34,179 bases of DNA, from NCBI RefSeq assembly GCF_009696275.1, contig NZ_VUMI01000060.1:1-34179 (forward strand), written 5' to 3'. A program made the translations under genes and the position numbers. This document shows, piece after piece, positions 5,183 through 34,179 of the stretch (positions are counted from its first letter, which is position 1; the number at the start of each line of letters is the position of its first letter). Source of the DNA: Eisenbergiella porci (GTDB lineage Bacteria; Bacillota; Clostridia; Lachnospirales; Lachnospiraceae). Below the pieces are notes generated by a model. The model was given only the letters and a program-made list of their open reading frames with translations, had not been told where the DNA came from and made no database searches.

Positions 5183-5207
5183 GCTTCGGGCCATCATGGC
5201 CCGAAGT
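5183..5207 (-). repeat. Intergenic stem-loop, copy 4
   Basis: GCTTCGGGCCA and TGGCCCGAAGT around TCA. It starts immediately after the TAA stop of virD4 and precedes the Maff2 gene. Confidence 0.9.
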
Positions 5208-6337
5208 TACACAAACTCGTCGCTGTCCAGATCGTCGAAATTCAAAAGGTCAGCTTCTTCGTCTGTGTCGGAGCCGTCCACCTCGTACACCGTGTATTCG
5301 TCCTCCGGCTTTAGTCTCAATGGCCGGTGGCGGAACAGGCGTTCCAAGTGGAAGGCGTTTTTCTTTTTGTCAAACTCGGCTGTGTACTTATAGTTGGGGT
5401 GCTTTTTCAAATCGTATTTGGGAGAAAAGAAGGGCGGAAGCCCCCGAAGCTGCAAGATACACTTGTCTCCCGGCATGGTGGTGATCTCGCTGGTCGTCAT
5501 CAGTTCCCGGCCAAGCCGCTGCATATTCTGGCTGTAACTCTCGGACTGGCCCCGGCTGCGGCCCTCGGTCTGCATGGAGATGGTGGCCTTGCCCAGCCAG
5601 TTTTCCGAAATATCCTTTAGGGTGGAAGCCTCCCGGCCTCCGAGGAACACGATACTGTCCATGTTACCCATGATGGTTTCGGAATGGTCTTTGTACAGCG
5701 CCTTGCATTGGCTCATGGCCTGATAAAAGAGCGTCAGGCTGATCTCCCGGGAACGGATAACGGCAACGATTTTTTCCAGCCCCGGCACCTGTCCCGTGTT
5801 GGCCGCCTCGTCCCACAGCACCCGTACATGATGGGGCAGGCGTCCGCCGTAGGTGTTGTCGGCCCGTTCACACAGAAGGTTGAACATCTGTGAGAAAGCG
5901 AGGGCCACAAGAAAGTTATAGGTGGTGTCCGTATCGCTGATAAGGAAAAACAGCGCCGATTTTTCATCCCCCAGCCGGTCAAGCTCCAGCTCGTCATAGG
6001 ACATGATCTCCCGAAGCTGGGGAATGTCAAAGGGAGCGAGGCGGGCCCCACAGCTAATAAGTATGCTCTTAGCTGTCTTGCCGCTTGCCAGCTTGTACTT
6101 CTTGTACTGCCTCACAGCGAAGTGCTGGGGACTCCGGCGCTCCAGCCCGTCAAACATATAGTCCACCGCGTTTTTGAAGGTTTCGTCATCCTCCCGGACT
6201 TCCATGCTGTTTATCATTTCCACCAGCGTATTCATGTTGCGTTCTTCCTCCGGCCCCTCAAATACGATGTAGGCCACAAGGGCGCAGTACAAAAGGGTTT
6301 CGGCTTTGGTCCAGAACTCGTCGCCCTCCTTGCCGTC
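5207..6337 (-). CDS. virD4: VirD4 coupling protein, 3' exon
   Basis: C-terminal 376 residues of the coupling protein, beginning DGKEGDEFWTKAETLLYCAL once the intron is removed. It contains the Walker B region VRVLWDEAANTGQVPG and the ATPase-core motif of the TraG/VirD4 family, then an acidic C-terminus (DTDEEADLLNFDDLDSDEFV). Joining exon 1 (ending NTKG) gives an uninterrupted frame of about 607 residues, the normal family size. The frame also runs upstream into the intron as an artificial MGKPTAGMPQ start. Confidence 0.92.
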   Translation of the reverse strand, partial: DGKEGDEFWTKAETLLYCALVAYIVFEGPEEERNMNTLVEMINSMEVREDDETFKNAVDYMFDGLERRSPQHFAVRQYKKYKLASGKTAKSILISCGARLAPFDIPQLREIMSYDELELDRLGDEKSALFFLISDTDTTYNFLVALAFSQMFNLLCERADNTYGGRLPHHVRVLWDEAANTGQVPGLEKIVAVIRSREISLTLFYQAMSQCKALYKDHSETIMGNMDSIVFLGGREASTLKDISENWLGKATISMQTEGRSRGQSESYSQNMQRLGRELMTTSEITTMPGDKCILQLRGLPPFFSPKYDLKKHPNYKYTAEFDKKKNAFHLERLFRHRPLRLKPEDEYTVYEVDGSDTDEEADLLNFDDLDSDEFV

Positions 6338-6398
6338 GTAGAGTAGGAATGAGCCGCCTTGCGGCATTCCTGCCGTAGGTTTGCCCAAACCCCTCCCA

Positions 6399-6432
6399 GA
6401 ACCGGACGTACACCTCTCGATGTATCCGGCTC
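6399..6432 (-). ncRNA. Group II intron domain V
   Basis: A 34-nt catalytic hairpin beginning GAGCCGGATAC, with an internal GAGA-type loop and closing GTCCGGTTC. It holds the catalytic triad and metal-binding bulge of the ribozyme. Domain VI follows at about 6398-6338, with an AGGAATG/CATTCCT stem. Confidence 0.9.
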
Positions 6433-6459
6433 GCCATCATTGCTTCAAATCAGCGTCGT

Positions 6460-8250
6460 TCAAGGGTGATGAATCTTGTGATGACAGTCCTTGCACACTG
6501 CAAGAGTTTTACGCTTTTTCGCTATCATCGCAAGTTCCCACAGTTGTTTTCCTTTGAGGTTCTTCACTTTATTTACATGGTGTATTTCCAGCGGTACATT
6601 GGTCTTTCCGCACAGCTCACACATGCGGGCGGACAGTCTGTCGTCAAATGATGTTCGGGAACCGACGTGCGCGATTGCAAAGTCTATGATTTTATCTGTC
6701 CAGAGGTCTGTATTTTTGCAATCCATAAACCTTGCGAAGCTGCGGCGCTTTATGCCTGCTTTTGTTTGGTAGGGCACACCCCAGCTGCCGTTTCCATCAC
6801 GGTATTTGCGCATCATTTTTCTGCTGGTGCTCTCATGCTTTCCAGCGAGAGTTTTCAGGCAGCTGTATTCCATCAGATATTCAAAATACTGAAGCTTGTT
6901 GAAATTGCTGGCTATGCTGTAATAGTTGCAAATACCACGCAGCTCAGAGTTGTACGTTGATACAATCTCCAAATCCGTACACCGAAAGATATATTTTCTT
7001 GCGGTAGGCTCTATTGTCCCGTCGCGTAGTTGCCGAATAACCGACTTCCCAAACAGGAAAGGCATGATTTTGTCCGCAAACGGAACGCACAGCTCCACAG
7101 ACCCGTTGAGCGTGCGGGAAACGTGGTTTCCGTGCGGCTTTAGCTTCTGGTCTCTCCGCACACGGATGTCATAACCCAAAAATCTTGCATACTGGTTACT
7201 GTGCGTAATGAGTGTCTTTTGCTCTGAAAGCTCCATTTTCAGGGTTTGGCTGATGAAGTCGGACAGCTGTCTCTTGATACGCTCACAGTCCGCTTTATCG
7301 CCCTTCACGCCAAGAATGAAGTCGTCAGCATAACGGATGTATTTGATGACTTTATCCGTTTTGGACATACAGGGCGTTTTATGCATGACTGCTTTTAGTT
7401 GAGCGATTTTCTGCAACAAAGCTGTTTTTTCCTGACCCGTTGCGGTTTTCAGCTGTTTTTGAGCCTTCTTTATCTGCCATGTGACCTTATCGTATTCCGG
7501 GGTATGGTGCCTGTCCCTGCTTTTATAGAACTCTTTGGCAGTCTTTTCCACGAACTTGTCCAGCTCATTCAGGTAGATATTTGCGAGTATGGGCGAAACG
7601 ATGCCGCCCTGCGGGCAGCCGGAGTAGGTAGCATGGTATTGCCAGTCCTCCATATAACCGGCTTTTAGGAATTTCCAAATGAGCTGAATCAGCCGTGCGT
7701 CTTTAATCTTGGCGTTTATGACGTTTGCCAAAACTCGGTGGTTGATGTTATCAAAACAGCCCTTAATATCGCCCTCAATAAACCACGACACACCTGAAAA
7801 TTCTCTTTTCAAGGATTTTAGCGCAGTGTGGCAACTCCTGTTGGGACGAAAGCCGTGAGAGTTGTTTGAAAAAATTGGCTCGTAGACCGATTCCAATATC
7901 ATTCTCAATACTTCCTGCACCAGCTTGTCCGTAAAGGTAGGAATCCCCAGGGGACGCTTTTTCGTGCTGTTCTGCTTTTTCTGGATGTACTCGCGGCGAA
8001 CGGGATTCGGCGTATAGGTTCCGTCAGCCAGAGATTGGATGATCCGGTCAACTTTTTCCTTGCTGAATCCGTCAGCTGTGTCGTCATTCACGCCTTTTGT
8101 TCCTGCGCCCTTGTTGGCGTAGAGGTTTTTGTACGCAAGATAATACAGGTCGGGTCTTAATAGATAGCGGTAGAGCCTTGTGAAGATTTCCTCTTTGTTG
8201 TCCCTTGAATTTTTTCTGATTCTATCCAAAATCTCGATTGTTGGTTGCAT
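6460..8250 (-). CDS. ltrA: LtrA-type intron-encoded protein (reverse transcriptase/maturase/endonuclease)
   Basis: 596 residues, about the same length as LtrA. It binds its intron RNA, aids splicing, and retrohomes by target-primed reverse transcription. The reverse transcriptase blocks are intact: KKRPLGIPTFTDK (about 97-109), GFRPNRSCH (133-141), EGDIKGCFDNINH (159-171), CPQGGIVSPILAN (212-224) and the catalytic YADD at 307-310. A maturase (X) domain follows. The C-terminal HNH nuclease has its zinc ligands from residue 544 (CELCG, EIHHVNKV, CKDCHHKIH). ATG 8250 has GGGAGGAAAG upstream. No frameshift is visible, so the intron is probably mobile. Confidence 0.95.
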   Translation of the reverse strand: MQPTIEILDRIRKNSRDNKEEIFTRLYRYLLRPDLYYLAYKNLYANKGAGTKGVNDDTADGFSKEKVDRIIQSLADGTYTPNPVRREYIQKKQNSTKKRPLGIPTFTDKLVQEVLRMILESVYEPIFSNNSHGFRPNRSCHTALKSLKREFSGVSWFIEGDIKGCFDNINHRVLANVINAKIKDARLIQLIWKFLKAGYMEDWQYHATYSGCPQGGIVSPILANIYLNELDKFVEKTAKEFYKSRDRHHTPEYDKVTWQIKKAQKQLKTATGQEKTALLQKIAQLKAVMHKTPCMSKTDKVIKYIRYADDFILGVKGDKADCERIKRQLSDFISQTLKMELSEQKTLITHSNQYARFLGYDIRVRRDQKLKPHGNHVSRTLNGSVELCVPFADKIMPFLFGKSVIRQLRDGTIEPTARKYIFRCTDLEIVSTYNSELRGICNYYSIASNFNKLQYFEYLMEYSCLKTLAGKHESTSRKMMRKYRDGNGSWGVPYQTKAGIKRRSFARFMDCKNTDLWTDKIIDFAIAHVGSRTSFDDRLSARMCELCGKTNVPLEIHHVNKVKNLKGKQLWELAMIAKKRKTLAVCKDCHHKIHHP

Positions 8251-8898
8251 TTGAGGCTTTCCTCCCTAATCAAATTTCAATTTTGGAATGCAATAACTGT
8301 TCTCCTTCGTCTGGAATACACGATATATTCCGTGAGAGTCGTTACGTCCCACAGGACTACTATGAGAACTCCGTTGCCATATCGGATATTCAGCGTCATC
8401 TCCCTTGCCTTTCGAGGGCTTGGGATTTATCGCCCGCAGGGGGCATTTCGCATAGCTCGTTTGAGCATTCCGACTTAGGCAATCCCCAGTTAGCGTAATA
8501 AGTAGGCAAATGCGGATTGTCGGATACGCTTTCGTTTCGTTATTTCCAGTTCTCTGGCTTGTCACATGAATGGATTGATAACCCATCGCGCAAAGGCGAA
8601 ACGCAATGTTATTCATATCAGAGGTTGATGCCGCCGTATCTACGGTGGTTACATACACATTCCTCCGCCCGAACACAACGGGGACTTGAAACTCGCATTC
8701 AACATTCAGTAGTTCTATCCTCATATCCGCTTAACGTAGCAATTCAGTCGTGCTCTTGTGTATAGAGCAACTTATCGCTTTCCCGCCATGCTATGGTCCC
8801 GCATCAGCTTTCGCCTATCGGTTAGGCGGGTCGTTTCCACTGTTATCTGAGTGGGTAGTGCCTGATTCTACTTCTTACTACGCCCTATCTGGGCGCGC

Positions 8899-9591
8899 GC
8901 CTTTGGTGTTGGCGATCAGAGCGGTGACGAATTTCAGCACGTCGCTTTCCGTTTTGATGTAGGCCAGCGGATTGTAGTGCATGGATTTGGAGAAGTCGAT
9001 ACTATTGAACACCCGTACCTTATATTTCTCCCGTTGCAGGAACCGCCCGCATTGGTCGAGGGTGCCGCCCTTCGGGTCCACCACCACATAGGAGGAATGG
9101 GCTTGAAGGAGCTGCGGGGTCAGCCAGAACCTTGTCTTGCCCGAACCGGACGAGCCGATGACGCAGGCGTTCAGGTTGCGAGCGTTGGCGGGTATCTTGG
9201 GGCGGGTGTTCATGGTAAGGAACTCCGTCCCGGTCAGAATGACATTGTTCTGAAATTTGGGGTCTACAAACGGCTTTATATCCTCCTTTGTCCCCCAGCG
9301 GGCGGTGCCGTACTCCGCATCCCGCCGGAATTTCTTTGCCTGCTTGATTTTGGACTGTATCAGCAGATACACCCCAGCCGCACCAGCGAGGCCCACCAGC
9401 AGGTCAATGCCGCCCAGTCCCGGCCAGTAAGTTTCAAAGGCTTTAGGGAAAGTGTCGAGCATCCCCATGAGCTTTGTCCCGAAGTCTGCGCCGGGCGCGA
9501 TACGGTAGGCCGTCCCGATTTTGGAGAAAAACCAGAACACAAAGAGGTACGGCAGGTTGGGGAGCACATATTTTCTGATCTTGTCACTCAA
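8899..9591 (-). CDS. virD4: VirD4 coupling protein, 5' exon
   Basis: N-terminal 231 residues of the type IV coupling protein (TraG/PcfC family), the ATPase that brings the relaxosome to the mating channel. Hydrophobic helices lie near residues 9-27 and 62-79, then the NTPase domain with Walker A GSSGSGKT at 146-153 and the typical VVDPKGGT strand. The exon ends ...ALIANTKG at 8899, directly before the intron. Its ATG overlaps the stop of pcfB (ATGA), implying translational coupling of PcfB and VirD4. Unspliced message would add only GARPDRA before a stop. Confidence 0.92.
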
Positions 9592-11213: not shown

Positions 11214-11927
11214 TTACCGTTCCTCATGGGAAGGCCCCGCCTTGTCCTTTTGCGGAGCGGGCGGGGCCTCTTGAAACCGTTTGAGCGCGCCGAGAATGGA
11301 ATGGGCGGGCTCGGCCTTTTCGGGATAGGCAAATACCCGGTGTTCCGGCGGTATGTCCTGCGTTCCGTGGTAATGCTCTTTGAAGCCAACCGGGTCCGCA
11401 GCCACATATCCACCGGGAGCGAATACGCCGCCCTCGTTGATACGCATATCCCGCCCGTATGCCTCATAATCGAAGTAGCCTTGAATGCGCTCCGGTATGT
11501 CGATGGTCCCCAGCTCGTCGGCGTACAGATGGCCCAGCCCTTCATCATCGGAAATATCCGGGTAAAAGCGGTAGAGGTCAAGGTTCTGCGTCAGGTTGAT
11601 TAGGTCCTTCACGCTGCCCGTGTGTTTTCCCAAGACAAGAGCAGCCTCAAAGGTTTCCAATCCGCCCTTGTCCCGTACTTCCAGCAGGGCATGGCCCAGC
11701 TCGTTCAGCTCGTCGATGTTCTCGTACTCGTCCAGATAGTCGTACAGTCCCAGCACATCGCTGTCAAAGCTGGTAATAAACACTTCGCTGTACCGCTTTC
11801 CGTCTATCCCGATTTTGGCAAGGGCGGCCTGTACCTCCTGTGTGGTCGTGGGAAAATGCACCGTCGTTCCCACTTCAATCCCCATCATGGGGTACAGGGC
11901 CGTGTTGGTTATATAGGCTTCAAACAT
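11214..11927 (-). CDS. ardA: Antirestriction protein ArdA
   Basis: About 237 residues. It begins MFEAYITNTALYPMM and is very acidic with DNA-mimic character (YDYLDEYENIDELNELGHAL; FYPDISDDEGLGHLYADELG; GYFDYEAYGRDMRI). ArdA proteins imitate DNA and block type I restriction enzymes, protecting the incoming element after transfer. The ATG at 11927 has AAAGGAGG 9 nt upstream, placed in the last codons of the methyltransferase gene; a longer frame from 12014 overlaps that gene and has no ribosome site. The last 30 residues (PPAPQKDKAGPSHEER) look disordered. Confidence 0.9.
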   Translation of the reverse strand: MFEAYITNTALYPMMGIEVGTTVHFPTTTQEVQAALAKIGIDGKRYSEVFITSFDSDVLGLYDYLDEYENIDELNELGHALLEVRDKGGLETFEAALVLGKHTGSVKDLINLTQNLDLYRFYPDISDDEGLGHLYADELGTIDIPERIQGYFDYEAYGRDMRINEGGVFAPGGYVAADPVGFKEHYHGTQDIPPEHRVFAYPEKAEPAHSILGALKRFQEAPPAPQKDKAGPSHEER

Positions 11928-11931
11928 GGGC

Positions 11932-13017
11932 TCAATCCTCCTTTCCGGCCCTGTCTGCCAGCACTTCATAAATCCCGGCCATGATGTAATCGGCGCAAGG
12001 GAGAGCAATCGCATTTCCCAGCGCCTTGTAGCGTTGCAGAGGCCGGATTTCCTCGCCGTCCACCCCGTACTTTGTCCAGCCCTCCGGCAGCCCCATCAGC
12101 CGCTCACTTTCCGTTTCCGTCAAGAAGCGGATACAGCCGCCGTCCGGGTCGCCCTCGTACCAAAAGGCGAAGGGCGTCACATCGCTGGCTAAAAGAGTGG
12201 GAAAAGGGTCAGTTGGTAATCCGAAGCTGTTTCGGAAGGCGGTTTCTTCCTGCCTTTTTGCCGCTCCCCGCATACGGAAGCATTGAAAGGGGTGGATGAC
12301 TGGTATTTGCCGCCCTGTTTCGAAAGAAGATGTTCGATCTCCTTCGGCGGCGGTCCGCCCGCCCTCTCGGCAAGGCGGAGGAAGTGGGAGCATTGGACGG
12401 GGCTTAAATAGTATGTCGGCGGCACGTCTGCCTCTAAAATCCGCCACGATGAAAATTCGCTGCCTTCGCGCCAGCCTTCGGGAGCCTGCCCAATACTGGG
12501 CGTCCATGAGACGCCAGCACACATCAGGCGTTCCCCCTCGCACCATTCCGGCGTTTCCCCATCTTCCAGAAGGAGGCATTGGAACTTCGGTGTCCGAGAA
12601 GGCGGATAGGACGGCTCTAAAATCCATCCGGTCATTTGTAGAAAACGCTCCCATGACGTTTTCCCAAACAGCGATAGCTGGATATAGGTTATCAGTGGCA
12701 TCCCTCATTTCCTGTATGATACGAAACGCCTGATAAAACAGGCTGGATTTTGCCCCGGCAAGGCCGGAGCGGTTGCCGATCAGAGAAAGGTTCTGACAGG
12801 GAGAGCCGAAGGTTATCACATGGACAGGCGGGATTTTCCCGCCGTCCACCTTCGTAATGTCCCCCAGGTGCGCCATATCGGGAAAGTGCCTTTTGGTTAT
12901 GGAGATCGGCGCTTTTTCAATCTCGCTGGCCCACACCGGACGGATACCGCAGCGGGAGGCCGCCAGAGGGAAAACGCCTATCCCGTCAAAAAGGCTCCCC
13001 AGCTTAATGTCCGGCAT
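11932..13017 (-). CDS. dcm: DNA (cytosine-5) methyltransferase
   Basis: 361 residues with the C5-methyltransferase motifs in order: motif I LFDGIGVFPLA (9-19), motif IV GSPCQNLS with catalytic Cys74, motif VI VWENVMGAF (about 117-125), motif VIII RQRIFIVAD, and motif X KALGNAIALP near the C-terminus. It transfers a methyl group from S-adenosylmethionine to cytosine. No restriction enzyme is adjacent. Its stop lies 4 nt before ardA, whose ribosome site it contains, so self-protection by methylation and by antirestriction are produced together. The region between motifs VIII and IX (target recognition) is short. Confidence 0.93.
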   Translation of the reverse strand: MPDIKLGSLFDGIGVFPLAASRCGIRPVWASEIEKAPISITKRHFPDMAHLGDITKVDGGKIPPVHVITFGSPCQNLSLIGNRSGLAGAKSSLFYQAFRIIQEMRDATDNLYPAIAVWENVMGAFSTNDRMDFRAVLSAFSDTEVPMPPSGRWGNAGMVRGGTPDVCWRLMDAQYWAGSRRLARRQRIFIVADFRGRRAADILFKPRPMLPLPPPCREGGRTAAEGDRTSSFETGRQIPVIHPFQCFRMRGAAKRQEETAFRNSFGLPTDPFPTLLASDVTPFAFWYEGDPDGGCIRFLTETESERLMGLPEGWTKYGVDGEEIRPLQRYKALGNAIALPCADYIMAGIYEVLADRAGKED

Positions 13018-27628: not shown

Positions 27629-28933
27629 ATGGCCGAAAGAAAAGAAGGTCTTTCCGCAAATGAAGCGTGGAAGGCGATTATTGAAAAATATCATGTTTTG
27701 GAGGAAGTTGAAAAAAACGGCTGTTTTCCTATTAAGGCCAGCCAGATTAAGGGGTTCAGGGAACCGCGGCTGATGGCAAAATGGGACAGCACGGATTCTC
27801 TGCCTGAGGTGCTGCGGAAAAATAGGATCAATATTTTGCCGGACAGCCGCAGCTCCTATGTTTTGGGGGATTTTATCCTCTATCAGAAAATTCCGGAGCT
27901 TGATGAGCCGGTGACGCGGATGAAGCAGGTGGAGCTGCCGGATTATGAAACCATTGACATAAATAACATCAGCTCTGAGGCCAATGCAATCAATGTGCTG
28001 ATCATTTCAGGGATTTTGGATGATTTTCTGGAAACGAGCGGTAATGTTTCCACCTTTAACGGACGGATGGGAACGGGATGCTTTGACTTTGAAGTGGATA
28101 CTTACCGGAAAATCAAAAGGAAAATCAGTGTCAACAATGCGCAGTGTGAGATTGACGGCGGTTTTGAAAACGAGGCCTCGGTGGTGATCATGGAGGCTAA
28201 AAATGTGGTCCATGAGGATTTTCATGTAAGGCAGCTGTATTATCCTTACAGGCTTTGGCGAAGCAGGGTGAAGAAGCCGATAAGACTTGTTTTTTCCGTA
28301 TACTCAAATATGATTTACCGGCTGTTTGAGTATCGTTTTGCCGCACCGGAGGATTATTCCTCCATAGAGCTGGTGCAGGCAAAGAATTATTCTCTGCAGG
28401 ATACGAAAATCAGCAGGCAGAATCTTCTGGAGGTCCGTCGGAATACGGCTGTGAAAACCGATGACAACATGGAAGGGACTAAAATACCATTTATTCAGGC
28501 CAATTCCATGGATCGGGTGATTTCGCTGTTGGAAAATATGTATGAAAATCCCATGACAACGCAGCAGATTGCGGAGCTTATGGATTTTGACCTGCGGCAG
28601 TCGGATTATTATTTTAATGCGGGGAGATATCTTGGTTTATTTGAAAAAACCGCGGATGACGGGCAGAAGGTGGTGTCTTTGACCGCATTGGGCAACCGTA
28701 TCTTCAGGCTGAATTATAAGAAGCGTCAGCTGAAGCTGGTGGAACTGATTTTGGAGCATCGGATATTTGCGGATTTTTTTGACGTGATGATGGAAACGGG
28801 AGAGGTGCCGGATAAAAAGAAAATAGCCGATAAAATGAGGGCGCTGCATGTGTGCAATGAGGGGCAGGTGGCGCGGCGGGCGAGTTCGGTGGCCGGTTGG
28901 CTGAAGTGGATTGGGAATCTGATGAAGCTGTAA
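27629..28933 (+). CDS. PD-(D/E)XK restriction-endonuclease-like protein (DUF6997-like)
   Basis: 434 residues. The middle part looks like a PD-(D/E)XK nuclease: RMGTGCFDFEVDTY, then CEIDGGFE (Glu174, Asp176) and VVIMEAKN (Glu189-Ala-Lys191), followed by FHVRQLYYPYRLW. The C-terminal part is helix-turn-helix-like (MTTQQIAELMDFDLRQSDYY, FNAGRYLGLF), as in type II restriction-enzyme-like proteins with DUF6996/DUF6997 domains. No DNA methyltransferase lies next to it. It could be an orphan restriction enzyme or a nuclease in another defence role. GAGGAG lies before ATG 27629. The fold is inferred from motifs only. Confidence 0.65.
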   Translation: MAERKEGLSANEAWKAIIEKYHVLEEVEKNGCFPIKASQIKGFREPRLMAKWDSTDSLPEVLRKNRINILPDSRSSYVLGDFILYQKIPELDEPVTRMKQVELPDYETIDINNISSEANAINVLIISGILDDFLETSGNVSTFNGRMGTGCFDFEVDTYRKIKRKISVNNAQCEIDGGFENEASVVIMEAKNVVHEDFHVRQLYYPYRLWRSRVKKPIRLVFSVYSNMIYRLFEYRFAAPEDYSSIELVQAKNYSLQDTKISRQNLLEVRRNTAVKTDDNMEGTKIPFIQANSMDRVISLLENMYENPMTTQQIAELMDFDLRQSDYYFNAGRYLGLFEKTADDGQKVVSLTALGNRIFRLNYKKRQLKLVELILEHRIFADFFDVMMETGEVPDKKKIADKMRALHVCNEGQVARRASSVAGWLKWIGNLMKL

Positions 28934-30093: not shown

Positions 30094-30594
30094 TTACAGG
30101 ATATCTTCTTCATATTTGATGGGGAGCTTTAGGACTTCCGGTTCAAGCTTATCGTGATAAATATCATCACCGCCCGCTTCAACATAGACTTTTCCTATTT
30201 CCTTGAAGGTTCTCAGGCCTTCCGGAGTGACGTATTTCTGCTTCGTAAATTCCATGTGAAGCCTGTAAAGTGTGGATCGGAAAGAAGAGATGGTACGTTC
30301 GTTATCTCTTTGAATGTGTGATTCCAACAGAGTTTTTATTTCTTTTACGTCGTTGTGTGTCTCGGTTTCGTATTGTTTTAAGGTTTCTATATCGGATTGG
30401 TGTCTGGTAAGAGTGGTTTCGACAGAAATGTTTTTATCCTCAAGGCCCTTTCTTTTCCGGTAATATTTATTCAGCAGACTTCCGAGGGCGTTAAGCAGCC
30501 TGGATACGCATGTAATAATAGAAGACAGAAATAGAATGACGCCGAGGATTGTTACGTTGTCATATGTTTTTAAAGAATCTATTATGATATCCAT
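30094..30594 (-). CDS. Membrane-anchored phage protein in holin position
   Basis: 166 residues. One hydrophobic helix, about 14-38 (NVTILGVILFLSSIITCVSR), is followed by a long charged coiled-coil (TTLTRHQSDIETLKQYETET; ETHNDVKEIKTLLESHIQRD) and a C-terminal part rich in Tyr/Glu. It lies 18 bp downstream of the endolysin gene. Position and topology fit the holin or holin-like membrane proteins that end many Firmicutes phage late operons, but it has a single helix and a long cytosolic tail. A role in lysis is inference. Confidence 0.65.
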   Translation of the reverse strand: MDIIIDSLKTYDNVTILGVILFLSSIITCVSRLLNALGSLLNKYYRKRKGLEDKNISVETTLTRHQSDIETLKQYETETHNDVKEIKTLLESHIQRDNERTISSFRSTLYRLHMEFTKQKYVTPEGLRTFKEIGKVYVEAGGDDIYHDKLEPEVLKLPIKYEEDIL

Positions 30595-30612: not shown

Positions 30613-32124
30613 CTACAGAGAGATATATTTGTTTGATACGTAGCCTGTATGACCATTGAATTCTATATAGTACCAGAGGGATACTGCATCCTGGCGGAGA
30701 ATGTTAACGGTATTGTATCGGGATAAAATAAAGCTTATGTCACCGGAAACGGGGGTATTTCTGCAGTTCAGCTTACTGCAGTTTACCACATGGCCTTTAT
30801 GTGAGCGGAGATAGCTGTAGCTGCACCATTTGTTTTCGGCGGGACTGATTTTGACCCAGTTGTTTTGCAGGGAATAGATGTTTACTTTATCGTAGCGGTG
30901 TTTCAGGCCGATGATATTTCCGGCGGTGGACGGCTTGTCCCTCACGTTGAGAACAGCAGCGGTGACCTCGTTCCAGGCTGTTTCTTCCGGTTGGGCGTTA
31001 GTGAGATATTCTTTATATAAATGGTTTACGTCAATTGGGACGGCTGAACCGGGGATAAGGGAGGATCCGTACTGCCATATATCATAATGGCCAATGGTGG
31101 GAGGCTTTGTGGAATATCTTGCACACCAGATTTGATAGTTTTTCAAACGGTCAAAAATCAGCATGGTTTTGAACCAGTTGTCGGAGGCGTAGACGCCGGG
31201 GAGGTAACCCAGTTCCATGATGCGTTCACAGAATGCGACGATATTTTTTGTACGCTGTTCTTTCGTGATATTGTCGGCGCGGCCGTTTTTGTTCGGATTG
31301 GAATATTCGGAATCAATGAATATGGGGTAGGAGACAGGGTAGGGGCGGATTTGTTCGCAAATCCAGTCCGCCTGCTGTCGGGCCTCGGTTTCATTGATGG
31401 ATTGGTCGTAGATGTAGAAGCCGAGATTCATGTGGTTTTTATGGGCTTCCTTTGCGTGGAAAAGGAATTTCTTATCCAGGGTAAGGGCTCCGGAGCTGTA
31501 GGCTCTGTAGCCGACGCGGATGATGATATCTTTATATTTTGAGGCGGCAAGAGTGAGATTGATGGTGTTGTGGTGTGAGATGTCGATTAATTCGCGGATG
31601 GTTGCGGGGGGTTGCGGCCGGGAGGCTGGTTCGTATTTCTTTGCGGCGGAATAATCTATGCCGGCAAGCTCTCCGTAGTAGGTGAAGGCATTGGAACGGG
31701 TGGTATATTTTGTTTTTACCAGATCTTCGGCGGTTCCTTTGGCTTCAAGTATCCATGCTTCGCCGGTATCGTCAATTTCCACGATGCCGATGTGGCCGCT
31801 TCGCCAGATGAGCATTCCGTTTTGCAGGTTTTGCGGATCTGAAACTTTGTATAGGTGTGTCATTCTGGCTTTTAGCTGGGCGCTGTTAATGTGAGGAATT
31901 CCGTAAGAATGGCATACGAAGCCGGAGCAGTCGATTCCTGTTCTGCCGATCTTGGCAAGGGCCAGTTTTTTGATGGCGGGGGTGTATATGTTGGGATACA
32001 TTGCTGCCAGGGTGTTTATTTTGGACTGGGTTACTGGCTCGTATTTCAGGCCGTATATGTAGACGACGCCGGAGGTGATGAGGTGGTTGGCGTTGGTGAC
32101 GGCGGTGGCGGGGGTGTTGGGCAT
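30613..32124 (-). CDS. Endolysin: NlpC/P60-like + GH25 lysozyme + SH3b
   Basis: 503 residues with two catalytic units. An NlpC/P60-like cysteine peptidase unit occupies about 20-160 (GIDCSGFVCHSYG, Cys66; WRSGHIGIVE, His111). A GH25 muramidase follows at about 178-385: ELIDISHHN with Asp181, GFYIYDQS, and YPIFIDSEY with the catalytic pair Asp271/Glu273, then GVYASDNWF and YDIWQYGS. Two SH3b cell-wall binding repeats end the protein (ITAAVLNVRDKP-like at about 398-455, then KLNCRNTPVSGDIS to 503). No signal peptide, so export would need a holin. AAAGGAG precedes ATG 32124. It lies directly beside the invertible fibre cassettes. Confidence 0.9.
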   Translation of the reverse strand: MPNTPATAVTNANHLITSGVVYIYGLKYEPVTQSKINTLAAMYPNIYTPAIKKLALAKIGRTGIDCSGFVCHSYGIPHINSAQLKARMTHLYKVSDPQNLQNGMLIWRSGHIGIVEIDDTGEAWILEAKGTAEDLVKTKYTTRSNAFTYYGELAGIDYSAAKKYEPASRPQPPATIRELIDISHHNTINLTLAASKYKDIIIRVGYRAYSSGALTLDKKFLFHAKEAHKNHMNLGFYIYDQSINETEARQQADWICEQIRPYPVSYPIFIDSEYSNPNKNGRADNITKEQRTKNIVAFCERIMELGYLPGVYASDNWFKTMLIFDRLKNYQIWCARYSTKPPTIGHYDIWQYGSSLIPGSAVPIDVNHLYKEYLTNAQPEETAWNEVTAAVLNVRDKPSTAGNIIGLKHRYDKVNIYSLQNNWVKISPAENKWCSYSYLRSHKGHVVNCSKLNCRNTPVSGDISFILSRYNTVNILRQDAVSLWYYIEFNGHTGYVSNKYISL

Positions 32125-32231: not shown

Positions 32232-32634
32232 TTCTAATTTTGGTGGATGTGCCCTGGCACAGGAAGGAAATGATTTCTACATTGTAGGTGCTGATGCAGT
32301 ACGAAAAAAATTGGGTAGCGCCAGATTTTTAGGATCTGTGCAGAATACTTGTAAAACTCTCAATCCTATTATAACAATGCCTTACGAAGGTAACATCAGT
32401 TCATCAGATGTGGAAAATATACGTATTGTTTTGAAACCAGATGCCCTCTCTAAAGTTTTTATGGGAAGTGTTTATACGCCTAATTTAAGTTGGCTTGTGA
32501 TGGATGCTTACACAGTTGAAATTAATACAGTTACGAAGCAAATTACAATTAGAATAACTCTTAGAAGTAACACTGGAAATATTGGCAATTGCGAGTTTCG
32601 ATGTAATTTCGGTATTTATTTACTAAGTTTCTAA
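32230..32634 (+). CDS. Cassette A: tail-fibre tip fragment
   Basis: No start codon; the frame opens after TGA 32227 and reads YSNFGGCALAQEGNDFYIVG, ADAVRKKLG, then about 100 residues of beta-rich sequence ending CEFRCNFGIYLLSF. The motif YIVGADAVRKKLG is shared with cassettes B and E, so the first ~25 residues are homologous and the rest is unrelated. Silent in this orientation unless fused. The A/T-rich codon use differs from the neighbouring chromosomal genes. Confidence 0.75.
   Translation, partial: YSNFGGCALAQEGNDFYIVGADAVRKKLGSARFLGSVQNTCKTLNPIITMPYEGNISSSDVENIRIVLKPDALSKVFMGSVYTPNLSWLVMDAYTVEINTVTKQITIRITLRSNTGNIGNCEFRCNFGIYLLSF
32232..32246 (+). repeat. Crossover site 1
   Basis: TTCTAATTTTGGTGG, heading cassette A to the right; in-frame SNFGG. 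Left boundary of the array. Confidence 0.85.
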
Positions 32635-32643
32635 AATCCCGTT

Positions 32644-33048
32644 TTAGTCATTGATTACGTTGCCTGTTATTAGGTAAAGTTTCCCTTTTGGCTGCACGTA
32701 ATAGCTTGCCCCCTTTGCCCCTACTGTAAGTGTTATTATTCCATTGTCGATGGATAATTTGGATGGATGATGATGATTTCCCGGTACCCCTCCTGGAGCT
32801 ATACCTACAACAGTATCCGCCAGCCCTACATAGTTAGCGGCGTTATTATAGACGGATGCAGGGACGTGTGACTTAACATAGGCTGGTACGGGAAATGTAT
32901 AAGTCTTAGGAGATGTCCCATAAGCGCTAAGTTCCCCATAGTCTGCAATAAAATAGATACCACTACCCAACATGACCCACACTGAATCAGCACCTCTTAC
33001 ATATTTAATACCATTTTCTTCTTTAAAGCAAGTCCACCTAAATTAGAA
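32644..33048 (-). pseudogene. Cassette B: tail-fibre tip fragment with frameshift at its head
   Basis: After the site the SNLGG frame reads LALKKKMVLNM and stops. The conserved continuation lies in another frame: EENGIKYVRGADSVWVMLG, then GIYFIADYGELSAYGTSPKT and a His-rich GNHHHPSKLSIDNGIITL, ending KLYLITGNVIND. One extra T in the run at about 33025 would give LAFKEENGIKYVRGADSV, collinear with LSFYEDETGKYVIGADSV of cassette E. Either the cassette is disabled by a 1-base deletion or the run is misread. Confidence 0.7.
33034..33048 (-). repeat. Crossover site 2
   Basis: TTCTAATTTAGGTGG on the minus strand, inverted relative to site 1; together they bound an 817-bp segment. Confidence 0.85.
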
Positions 33049-33131
33049 CTTTAGTAAATAGATTAATGTCATATGTAATTAACTTATACAATTAAATATT
33101 TATGATAATATAGCTGAAGTAAAAAACAATA
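33049..33131. other. Spacer between divergent sites 2 and 3
   Basis: 83 bp of A/T-rich DNA without coding potential, separating the heads of cassettes B and C. Such spacers flank segments when each neighbour keeps its own site. Confidence 0.6.
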
Positions 33132-33546
33132 TTCTAATTTAGGTGGAAATAAATTCCGGCTCAATAATACCAAACTTGAATATTGGGATGGAACACAATG
33201 GGTGCAAGCTGTTCCTCAACCTGCAGGTTTTTTGCGTACAGTCAGCATAGGTGGTTGGGGGAGCACAGTCAGCATCACAGTTGGTAATAAGTATTACAAA
33301 ACCATAAAGTGGAAAACCCGCGACTATATACACATACTAAACATGCGTCTATATGATAATTCAGGAAATCTCCTTATAGATGAAAATCTTTTTTATAACT
33401 TTTCCGCAGGGGGTGGTGCAGTTAATAACGAATCTGGGACCGTAAATATGACACAATATGAAAACTATAATGTTGATTATATGGTCTTTACAGCCACCGG
33501 TGATAATAATAACGGAAAAGGATATCTTACAATATCTGCTGATTGA
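33130..33546 (+). CDS. Cassette C: tail-fibre tip fragment
   Basis: No start codon; reads YSNLGGNKFRLNNTKLEYWD, GTQWVQAVPQPAGFLRTVSI, then a beta-rich part to GKGYLTISAD. The LEYWDGTQWVQA stretch is typical of phage tail-fibre and collar proteins. The body is unrelated to A, B and E. The frame is open upstream to TGA 33115. Confidence 0.75.
   Translation, partial: YSNLGGNKFRLNNTKLEYWDGTQWVQAVPQPAGFLRTVSIGGWGSTVSITVGNKYYKTIKWKTRDYIHILNMRLYDNSGNLLIDENLFYNFSAGGGAVNNESGTVNMTQYENYNVDYMVFTATGDNNNGKGYLTISAD
33132..33146 (+). repeat. Crossover site 3
   Basis: TTCTAATTTAGGTGG, identical to site 2 but opposite in direction; heads cassette C. Confidence 0.85.
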
Positions 33547-33556
33547 TTGTGCTTAA

Positions 33557-33877
33557 CTATGTGAATTTTACAGCTCTGTACCTACATGGACTTACCCCAG
33601 CATTAAAGTTACAGGTAAAACCGTCAGAATTAACGGTTACTGAGTCAACGTTGTTACCCGAATAAATCGAATATAAGCGCTTGATTTCATATTTGCTGCC
33701 AAATTCTACATATAATAAATCTGGTTGAAATCCGAGAGTAATTGTAAACCTATTTCCATCAATTTCGTTAGTAATGTTAATTACTCTGTTAAAAGGGATT
33801 ACTGTATCGGCACCTCCCGGGGGAATGTATCCAGGTTTACCATCGGTTGTAGTCCCGAATTTGTACCCATTTAAATT
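33557..33877 (-). CDS. Cassette D: tail-fibre tip fragment
   Basis: About 106 residues with no start codon, directly after a TAG: NLNGYKFGTTTDGKPGYIPP, GGADTVIPFNRVINITNEID, ending NAGVSPCRYRAVKFT. The GYKFGTTTDGKPGY...GADTVIPF pattern is common in clostridial phage tail proteins. Its head overlaps the plus-strand site 4. On the minus strand it reads AATTTAAATGGG, a diverged form of AATTTAGGTGG, so joining at AATTT would give S-N-L-N-G in frame. Confidence 0.7.
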   Translation of the reverse strand, partial: NLNGYKFGTTTDGKPGYIPPGGADTVIPFNRVINITNEIDGNRFTITLGFQPDLLYVEFGSKYEIKRLYSIYSGNNVDSVTVNSDGFTCNFNAGVSPCRYRAVKFT

Positions 33878-33890
33878 CTAATTTTGGTGG
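33876..33890 (+). repeat. Crossover site 4
   Basis: TTCTAATTTTGGTGG, identical to site 1, heading cassette E; its left half is shared with the head of cassette D on the other strand. Confidence 0.85.
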
Positions 33891-34089
33891 CTTGTCTTTC
33901 TATGAAGATGAAACTGGAAAGTATGTAATAGGTGCTGATTCAGTCCCAAAAAAATTGGGTAAATCTACACCTATTAAATTATATTCTGGCGTGGGTAATG
34001 GAACATATGATTGTAGCTCTGTAAAAGATTATGCCCAGTTATCTAAAGATAAGATGTTGGGGTCAAAAGAGTTTGTAAAAACTCTCTGA
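33877..34089 (+). CDS. Cassette E: tail-fibre tip fragment
   Basis: No start codon; SNFGGLSFYEDETGKYVIGA, DSVPKKLGKSTPIKLYSGVG, ending LGSKEFVKTL before TGA. Shares the first ~25 residues with cassettes A and B. At about 70 residues it is the shortest cassette. Confidence 0.75.
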   Translation, partial: SNFGGLSFYEDETGKYVIGADSVPKKLGKSTPIKLYSGVGNGTYDCSSVKDYAQLSKDKMLGSKEFVKTL

Positions 34090-34147
34090 CCTACCATATA
34101 GTACCTTGAAAATTTTACACAATTGGATTTTTATCATTTTCCAGATG

Positions 34148-34179
34148 TTAGTAGTCAATACCAAAATGACTGTCAGTCC
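34148..34179 (-). CDS. Cassette F: extreme C-terminus (partial)
   Basis: On the minus strand the last residues TDSHFGIDY followed by TAA. Its position, convergent to cassette E, fits the alternating pattern. Too short for more than a tentative call. Confidence 0.3.
   Translation of the reverse strand, partial: TDSHFGIDY

What the first reader, a model, noticed from the sequence alone, without database searches (positions are those of the whole stretch)
32232..34179. Multi-cassette shufflon that would swap receptor-binding tips of a phage or phage-like tail fibre
Four copies of the 15-mer TTCTAATTTWGGTGG occur in both directions within 1.7 kb. Each encodes Ser-Asn-Phe/Leu-Gly-Gly in frame at the head of a startless, tail-fibre-like coding fragment that ends in its own stop codon. 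The fragments alternate in direction and are paired tail to tail. This is the logic of the R64 pilV shufflon, here next to an endolysin. Frame-keeping sites at the cassette heads, unrelated bodies and lack of ribosome sites are seen directly. Inversion and tip exchange are inferred. The site sequence is not one I recognise from Gin/Hin/Cin or R64 sfx sites.
Basis: partly seen in the sequence, partly recalled or inferred. Interest (0 to 1): 0.92.

Follow-up and report, generated by a model that had tools for sequence, protein, structure and literature searches.

The report
Broken shuffling locus for tail tips
A bacterium carries a worn-out DNA shuffling array for swapping the tips of a phage-tail-like particle; an intact copy with its own recombinase sits in a relative, and the DNA sites resemble those of other switches.

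Summary
Four exact 15-mers lie at the stated places, against 0.00 in 100 shuffles. Two of the four heads run into intact tip frames; one is out of frame with its body, one is cut by an insertion sequence (IS). The missing constant tail gene is on contig C147, joined to the window's end through one IS copy (7-bp target duplication). The orthologous locus in Eisenbergiella tayi looks like a full shufflon: constant gene, eight opposed tips, eight sites (seven exact), and a tyrosine recombinase inside the array. The window's copy has no recombinase and is probably frozen, unless one acts in trans. The surrounding genes look like a tail-only (tailocin-like) chromosomal element rather than a complete prophage; this is less certain. 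The site is not unique: tail switches of related elements, and hsdS switches beside this recombinase family, share arms AAA[T/C]...ATTTA around a 4-nt centre that is constant within a system and differs between systems. Inversion, tip exchange and killing are inferred, not seen.

The parts
30094..30594 (-). holin-position gene (166 aa); orthologues follow the endolysin in E. tayi and CE91-St56
   Evidence: ORF; same order in L073 and L074; only weak family matches
30613..32124 (-). endolysin, GH25 plus SH3 domains
   Evidence: PF01183 and PF08239 over cut-off; phrog_291 endolysin
32232..32246 (+). recombination-type site 1 (arms ATAT / ATTTT, centre TCTA)
32233..32634 (+). tip C1, startless, 133 aa
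32644..33047 (-). tip C2; the frame from its site stops after 16 aa, the 132-aa tip-like body is in another frame
   Evidence: body 45% identical over 53 aa to an E. tayi tip
33034..33048 (-). site 2 (arm AAGT, centre TCTA)
33049..33131 (.). 83-bp spacer between two segments
   Evidence: between sites 2 and 3; the corresponding E. tayi spacers are 62 and 83 bp by the site coordinates
33132..33146 (+). site 3 (arm ATAT, centre TCTA)
33133..33546 (+). tip C3, startless, 137 aa
33557..33877 (-). tip C5, 106 aa (NLNGYKFG...), head fused back to back with site 4
   Evidence: 57% identical over 47 aa to an E. tayi tip
33876..33890 (+). site 4 (arms AAAT / ATTTT, centre TCTA); no spacer to C5, at the position where E. 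tayi carries the recombinase
   Evidence: comparison
33877..34052 (+). head piece of tip C4, cut by the IS; its other piece is on C147 minus strand
34046..34052 (.). 7-bp IS target duplication AAGATAA, repeated at the C147 end
34053..34179 (.). terminus of a multi-copy IS (15 termini found in the genome); the contig ends inside it

Best explanation
The locus is the variable part of a tail-tip shufflon in a tail-only, tailocin-like chromosomal element of an Eisenbergiella-group bacterium. A 73-aa constant head (contig C147) ends at the site; behind it lie opposed, startless tips in tail-to-tail pairs between inverted sites, then endolysin and holin. In the intact form (E. tayi) a Xer-like tyrosine recombinase encoded within the array would recombine inverted AAAT-N4-ATTTA sites. 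That would flip the DNA between them and place another tip, in frame, behind the constant head, so the particle's receptor specificity changes. The copy in this window has no recombinase and is damaged (one tip out of frame, one IS-cut, one without its own site). It is most likely frozen with tip C6 expressed, unless a recombinase from elsewhere in the genome acts in trans. Shown: anatomy, orthology, recombinase homology, IS junction. Inferred: inversion, tip exchange, tailocin function, past presence and loss of the recombinase.
For: Exact sites beyond chance. Constant gene with the same site, reading towards the window. IS junction: 14 of 15 IS termini pair by 7-bp duplications into 7 left/right pairs, among them C107 with C147; one other pair is a run of seven T. 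E. tayi orthologue: the search with up to one mismatch found 7 sites, all exact, against 0.02 expected; with the variant one, 8 of 8 have TAGCGATTTA; 8 of 8 tips open for 123-189 aa; recombinase 11393-12397 with PF00589 over cut-off and the R, K, H, R, H, Y of the recalled Xer motif invariant in a three-member alignment. All 7 exact sites of that genome are in this locus; 11 of 13 genus genomes, the window's own among them, have none of that type. Constant heads agree at 65-71 of 73 positions between the three genomes while distal tips differ. The recombinase's best match in another genome of the genus (37%) lies beside hsdM and an hsdS half gene.
Against: No rearranged copy of the same array was seen, so inversion is unproven even in E. 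tayi. No recombinase in this genome's element. CE91-St56 has the constant gene and two tips but no recombinase in the array; an integrase-type protein about 6 kb beyond its holin is only 24% identical. The tail-only reading rests on family scans with few hits: the 244-aa protein taken as tail tube is filed in PHROGs under 'head and packaging', and the 659-aa fibre-type protein has weak matches to head-type families among others. Structure prediction was never available.
Confidence: 0.82

Rival explanations
1. The window's shufflon is still active: a recombinase of the same family, encoded by a prophage-like contig of the same genome (C108), acts in trans on the TCTA sites because it reads the arms and not the centre.
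For: C108 carries a family member (32% to E. tayi's) and its own two-tip switch with arms AAAT/ATTTA and centre CAGA. Its relative in viral contig 2840324701_000002 (recombinase 75%, constant gene 54% identical over 109 aa) has centre AGCG, so related enzymes go with different centres. Four of five TCTA sites are exact 15-mers. The genome has 36 serine-type and 36 tyrosine-type recombinase matches in all, so other candidates exist.
Against: Trans action was not seen. The E. tayi and C108 recombinases are only about 32% identical. Broken tips and the fused site suggest relaxed selection. Left arms of sites 1-3 are imperfect (ATAT, AAGT), though four E. tayi sites have imperfect left arms too.
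Confidence: 0.2
2. The element is part of a complete but unrecognised large prophage, not a tailocin; the tips then set phage host range.
For: Element proteins are related to those of phages, many of about 100-140 kb; the 244-aa protein is filed as head/packaging virion protein.
Against: No terminase, portal or capsid family was found among 18 element proteins scanned: 14 of CE91-St56 and 4 orthologues from the other genomes. The same upstream genes lie beside the element in three genomes. In phage contig L154 a 371-aa protein with a weak head-type match and genes of unknown function lie upstream of the same 159-272-244-aa block, where the Eisenbergiella element has an RNA-polymerase-like gene.
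Confidence: 0.2
3. The repeats are conserved adaptor-coding sequence in a degraded tandem of tail genes and were never recombination sites.
For: The repeat encodes part of a conserved head motif; tips have homologous adaptor segments.
Against: Opposed orientation, startless frames, an invariant 10-bp DNA block in 8 of 8 E. tayi sites while the next codons vary, and a tyrosine recombinase inside the array. The same DNA block is used in viral contigs L158 and L161, whose constant proteins show no match to the tail element's.
Confidence: 0.06
4. Assembly error: C107 and C147 are falsely related, and the tips belong to a different element.
For: Fragmented draft with 149 contigs and a multi-copy IS.
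Against: Left/right 7-bp IS pairing that for C107 fits C147 alone among the 15 termini, and the same gene order (constant gene, tips, endolysin, holin) in E. tayi and CE91-St56.
Confidence: 0.03

Closest known systems
Rin shufflon of Bifidobacterium prophages (PMC6109161; passages read)
   Same: Constant receptor-binding N-terminus, several variable C-termini, short asymmetric repeats, armless tyrosine recombinase
   Different: Rin repeat is TTCCCTAACCC and its invertase flanks the array; here the sites are AAAT-N4-ATTTA, the recombinase is inside the array in E. tayi and absent in the window, and the host element looks tail-only
R64 pilV shufflon with Rci (recalled; not read)
   Same: Multi-cassette, opposed startless C-termini between inverted sites, tyrosine recombinase
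   Different: Pilus adhesin, not a tail tip; no comparison with sfx sites or Rci was made here
Carotovoricin (Ein invertase), a Gram-negative tailocin (passages of PMC13195805; original paper recalled)
   Same: Inversion of tail-fibre ends in a phage-tail-like bacteriocin
   Different: Gram-negative host; that Ein is a serine invertase is recalled, not read
hsdS invertases such as PsrA of Streptococcus pneumoniae (PMC7096588, passages)
   Same: Tyrosine recombinase, short inverted repeat in coding sequence; the nearest genus homologue sits beside hsdM/hsdS
   Different: Target is a methyltransferase specificity gene; the PsrA repeat was not compared

Membership tests
Multi-cassette shufflon (R64/Rin logic) | Constant N-terminal coding part ending at a repeat | tested here: met
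   C147 7345-7563, site at 7560 with one mismatch
Multi-cassette shufflon (R64/Rin logic) | Several startless alternative C-termini behind inverted copies of the repeat | tested here: met
   Window array: six tips counting C6, of which C1, C3 and C6 are intact behind a site; E. tayi: 8 of 8
Multi-cassette shufflon (R64/Rin logic) | Site-specific recombinase in the locus | tested here: not met
   No tyrosine- or serine-recombinase match on C107 or C147; met in E. tayi. The window copy is therefore filed as a degenerate relative, not a working shufflon
Multi-cassette shufflon (R64/Rin logic) | Observed inversion between sites | not testable with these tools
   No reads, and one genome per species
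Tyrosine DNA invertase (armless Xer-like) | Catalytic R-K-H-R-H-Y and Xer-like domains without an arm-binding domain | tested here: met
   E. tayi protein, 334 aa: PF00589 over cut-off, no arm-binding family matched; Xer models matched below their cut-offs; residues (recalled motif) invariant in A3
Tyrosine DNA invertase (armless Xer-like) | Inverts DNA at its sites | not testable with these tools
   Needs experiment
Tailocin (phage-tail-like bacteriocin) | Tail and lysis genes without head and packaging genes | tested here: inconclusive
   No terminase, portal or capsid family among 18 element proteins scanned; the tube-like protein is filed under head/packaging
Tailocin (phage-tail-like bacteriocin) | Fixed chromosomal locus | tested here: inconclusive
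   The same upstream genes in G000, G401 and G407, not wholly in the same order; the downstream flanks differ
Tailocin (phage-tail-like bacteriocin) | Kills related bacteria | not testable with these tools
   Needs experiment

The most novel reading that the evidence does not exclude
One recombinase family serves both hsdS switches and tail-tip switches by binding common arms (AAA[T/C]...ATTTA), while the 4-nt centre acts as an exchangeable barcode. Sites recombine only with sites of the same centre, so several inversion systems with the same arms can share a cell (here a TCTA tail element and a CAGA prophage) without scrambling each other, and a recombinase can serve other elements in trans. 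A whole array can move to a new centre in concert, as between AGCG and TCTA in related species. Tips can pass between tailocin and prophages whose centres match.
Probability: 0.35. Interest if true: 0.75.

Novelty: new variant of a known kind. Interest (0 to 1): 0.55.

Why it matters
It would extend tyrosine-recombinase shufflons to a tail-like element of Lachnospiraceae and link two textbook inversion systems, type I restriction specificity and tail tips, through one recombinase family and one site pattern. The similar-arm, variable-centre pattern gives a direct prediction (same centre recombines, different centre does not) that one reporter-plasmid experiment can test. The window copy also shows what such a system looks like in decay: no recombinase, a fused site, a shifted frame, an IS.

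Tried and rejected
Rejected: a universal tip socket across the family. The E. tayi site is found in 2 of 397 family genomes, one hit each, against 10 hits of the reversed control pattern. Rejected: the TTCTAATTTWGGTGG 15-mer as a marker of further shufflons. Considered: C108 as a continuation of the window's element; it has its own constant gene and switch and a terminase-like gene read by eye, so I take it as separate. Single-protein recombinase search in viral contigs found none; the three-member alignment found 22 relatives. Phage records searched with the E. tayi constant protein gave no match. No inverted repeat of 18 or more bases around the G402 and C108 recombinases. Recombinase tree, 20 of the 22 viral loci plus three: E. 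tayi sits on a very long branch, so its place is unsure.

Results against the arm/centre rule: 10 of 22 recombinase loci have no qualifying in-frame site in the DNA held and 18 of 22 have no inward same-centre pair, some of them cut short; the G402 hsdS locus L152 has no pair. L308-L310 have near-identical recombinases and are not independent. The single-site count had no control. 80 of the 96 control loci were fetched by a site-like pattern, so they are not random. The pair test had 5 shuffles per locus, all without a pair; it also finds no pair in the window itself, because C2 and C4 are broken.

Literature. 'Shufflon' with 'tailocin' returned 0 papers, 'Eisenbergiella' with 'tailocin' 0, 'invertible' with 'tail fiber', 'tyrosine' and 'Lachnospiraceae' 0. 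Subscription papers are mostly not held.
Full report
Observation. TTCTAATTTWGGTGG occurs four times exactly in the last 2 kb of the window (32232+, 33034-, 33132+, 33876+) and not once in 100 dinucleotide shuffles. In the whole 6.10-Mb genome the search with up to one mismatch found five places: these four and one single-mismatch copy at C147:7560; the reversed control pattern found none. The window is contig C107 complete, so the array runs off its end.

The frames behind the sites. C1 (133 aa) and C3 (137 aa) are intact startless tips. From site 2 the head frame stops after 16 aa and a 132-aa tip-like body lies in another frame. From site 4 the tip runs 58 aa to an IS. A fifth tip, C5 (106 aa), reads leftward from the back of site 4. 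An open frame of at least 100 codons has a probability of about 0.0006 in random sequence of this make-up.

The missing side. Contig C147 (8.4 kb) holds tail-type genes and then a 210-aa gene whose first 73 aa end at the site: the constant part with tip C6 attached. Both contigs end in the same multi-copy IS (15 termini). 14 of the 15 termini pair into 7 left/right pairs by exact 7-bp duplications, and C107 pairs with C147 by AAGATAA. One other of the seven pairs is a run of seven T and is weak. The array is thus closed: constant head with C6, C4 (IS-cut), C5, C3, C2, C1, endolysin, holin. Of 36 tyrosine- and 36 serine-recombinase matches in the genome none lies on C107 or C147.

Orthologues. 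The constant protein has relatives in E. tayi (L073; 65 of 73 head positions identical) and in Lachnospiraceae bacterium CE91-St56 (L074; 67 of 73). In E. tayi the same gene order holds seven exact sites TAGCGATTTAGGNGG (expected 0.02) plus one variant, eight tips of 123-189 aa all open, and a 334-aa tyrosine recombinase inside the array. In that whole genome all seven exact sites lie here; CE91-St56 has one, and the other 11 of 13 genus genomes have none. CE91-St56 has two tips and no recombinase in the array. In the window's genome the place where E. tayi carries the recombinase is a direct fusion of site 4 with the head of C5; that the gene was lost there is inference. A relative of the constant head was found in 3 of 13 genus genomes and 9 of 397 family genomes, the window's own counted in both and the other eight of the family at 29-52% identity; I saw no opposed tips behind those in the gene lists, but did not test this formally.

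The element. In CE91-St56 and E. tayi the genes run from an RNA-polymerase-like protein (distant match, 24% over a third of its length, to an Enterocloster phage protein annotated as RNA-dependent RNA polymerase) through a 159-272-244-aa block, a long tape-measure-like gene, fibre- and baseplate-like genes (one with DUF5048) to the constant gene, tips, endolysin and holin. The 244-aa gene was read in CE91-St56 and the window's genome; in E. tayi it shows as a 91% match. No terminase, portal or capsid family was found among 18 element proteins scanned, 14 of CE91-St56 and 4 orthologues from the window's genome and E. tayi; a few small frames were not scanned. The same upstream genes (309-aa, 490-aa, NUDIX-like and sigma-type) lie beside the element in all three genomes, not wholly in the same order. 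In phage contigs L153 and L154 the 159-272-244 block is 33-67% identical; in L154 it is preceded by a 371-aa protein with a weak head-type match and by genes of unknown function. This points to a tail-only, chromosomally inherited element. Against it: the 244-aa protein is filed by PHROGs under head and packaging, and its structure could not be predicted. In this genome 16 of 16 element proteins checked are open frames; a second break between C73 and C147 also looks like an IS, read by eye.

The recombinase. E. tayi's enzyme matches PF00589 over its cut-off, Xer-type models below their cut-offs, and XerC-like, XerA and XerD chains of solved structures. The six catalytic residues of the recalled Xer motif are invariant in a three-member alignment. 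Its best other match in the genus (37%) sits beside hsdM, an hsdS half gene and an opposed reading frame without a Pfam hit. The best match in the window's genome (32%) lies by a terminase-like gene on C108.

The site code. In E. tayi (8 of 8), CE91-St56 (2 of 2) and two viral contigs of about 40 kb (L158 2 of 2; L161 2 of 2 and L165 1 of 1, one contig) the invariant DNA is TAGCGATTTA, mostly within the dyad TAAAT-AGCG-ATTTA; the window's five sites have similar, less perfect arms with TCTA in the centre. L158 and L314 are parts of one viral contig that carries an AGCG tail switch and a family recombinase. C108 has a recombinase 75% identical to that one, a related constant gene (54% over 109 aa) and its own two-tip switch with centre CAGA. 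For the L161/L165 contig and CE91-St56 no family recombinase was seen with the switch. Among 22 viral loci with the recombinase family, 12 have an in-frame AAA[T/C]-N4-ATTTA site with a frame of at least 80 aa, and 4 have inward same-centre pairs; none of 96 control loci (1.0 Mb) has a pair, but 80 of those controls had been fetched by a site-like pattern. The centres there are AAGA, GAGA, GATA, CATA and GCTA. Eight of ten such frames tested are hsdS specificity domains. Negative results: 10 of 22 loci lack such a site in the DNA held, and L152 lacks a pair.

Tips travel. A CE91-St56 tip is 78.7% identical in DNA over 94 bases to a tip of viral contig stretch L165 and 47% identical in protein over 121 aa to a C108 tip.

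Mechanism. Best supported: inversion between same-centre inverted sites exchanges the tip behind the constant head, as in R64 (recalled) and as proposed for the Rin shufflon of Bifidobacterium prophages (PMC6109161, passages read). In this genome the array is damaged and has no enzyme in cis, so it is probably frozen; trans action by the C108 enzyme is possible. None of this was observed in action.

Known or new. A tyrosine-recombinase tail shufflon is known (Rin), and inversion in tailocins is known (carotovoricin; passages of PMC13195805; passages of PMC13280938, report an inverted xenorhabdicin region with no invertase in the locus). Searches joining shufflon with tailocin or Eisenbergiella with tailocin returned no paper. 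A search joining hsdS, tail fibre, DNA inversion and tyrosine recombinase returned one survey (PMC5903667), which reports both kinds of inversion; the passages I saw do not link them by a common site. I rate it a new variant of a known kind; the barcode idea is the bold part and is untested.

Noticed in passing
window 5207-9591, minus strand: A group II intron (RF00029 at 6338-6434; reverse transcriptase/maturase 6463-8250) splits a VirD4/TraG-type coupling protein gene whose halves are at 5210-6388 and 8881-9591, near a TraG P-loop/VirB4-type gene (104-2302), in what looks like a conjugative element.
   Followed up: partly
L085 9727-10908 and C108:114-912 (L102): A prophage-like contig of the same genome has its own two-tip tail switch (centre CAGA) about 19 kb from a family recombinase.
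   Followed up: partly
L105 5176-7380 and 8285-11086: Divergent gene pair at the head of the tail element: a protein with an ECF-sigma domain (TIGR02937; its E. tayi orthologue also has a weak GmrSD_N match) and an RNA-polymerase-like protein; possibly the element's own transcription control.
   Followed up: no
L006 1-60 and the end of L105: Inverted near-identical stretches (AACCAA-TCGCACATGC, one difference) near the facing ends of C73 and C147 suggest a second IS between the 92-aa gene and the 935-aa fibre gene of the same element (read by eye).
   Followed up: no
window 27629-28933: A conserved 434-aa host gene lies after the holin here but upstream of the element in E. tayi and CE91-St56, a rearrangement of the flank.
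   Followed up: no
L296-L310: hsdS-type sites with five different centres recur beside this recombinase family in viral contigs; a wider arm/centre census looks worthwhile.
   Followed up: partly
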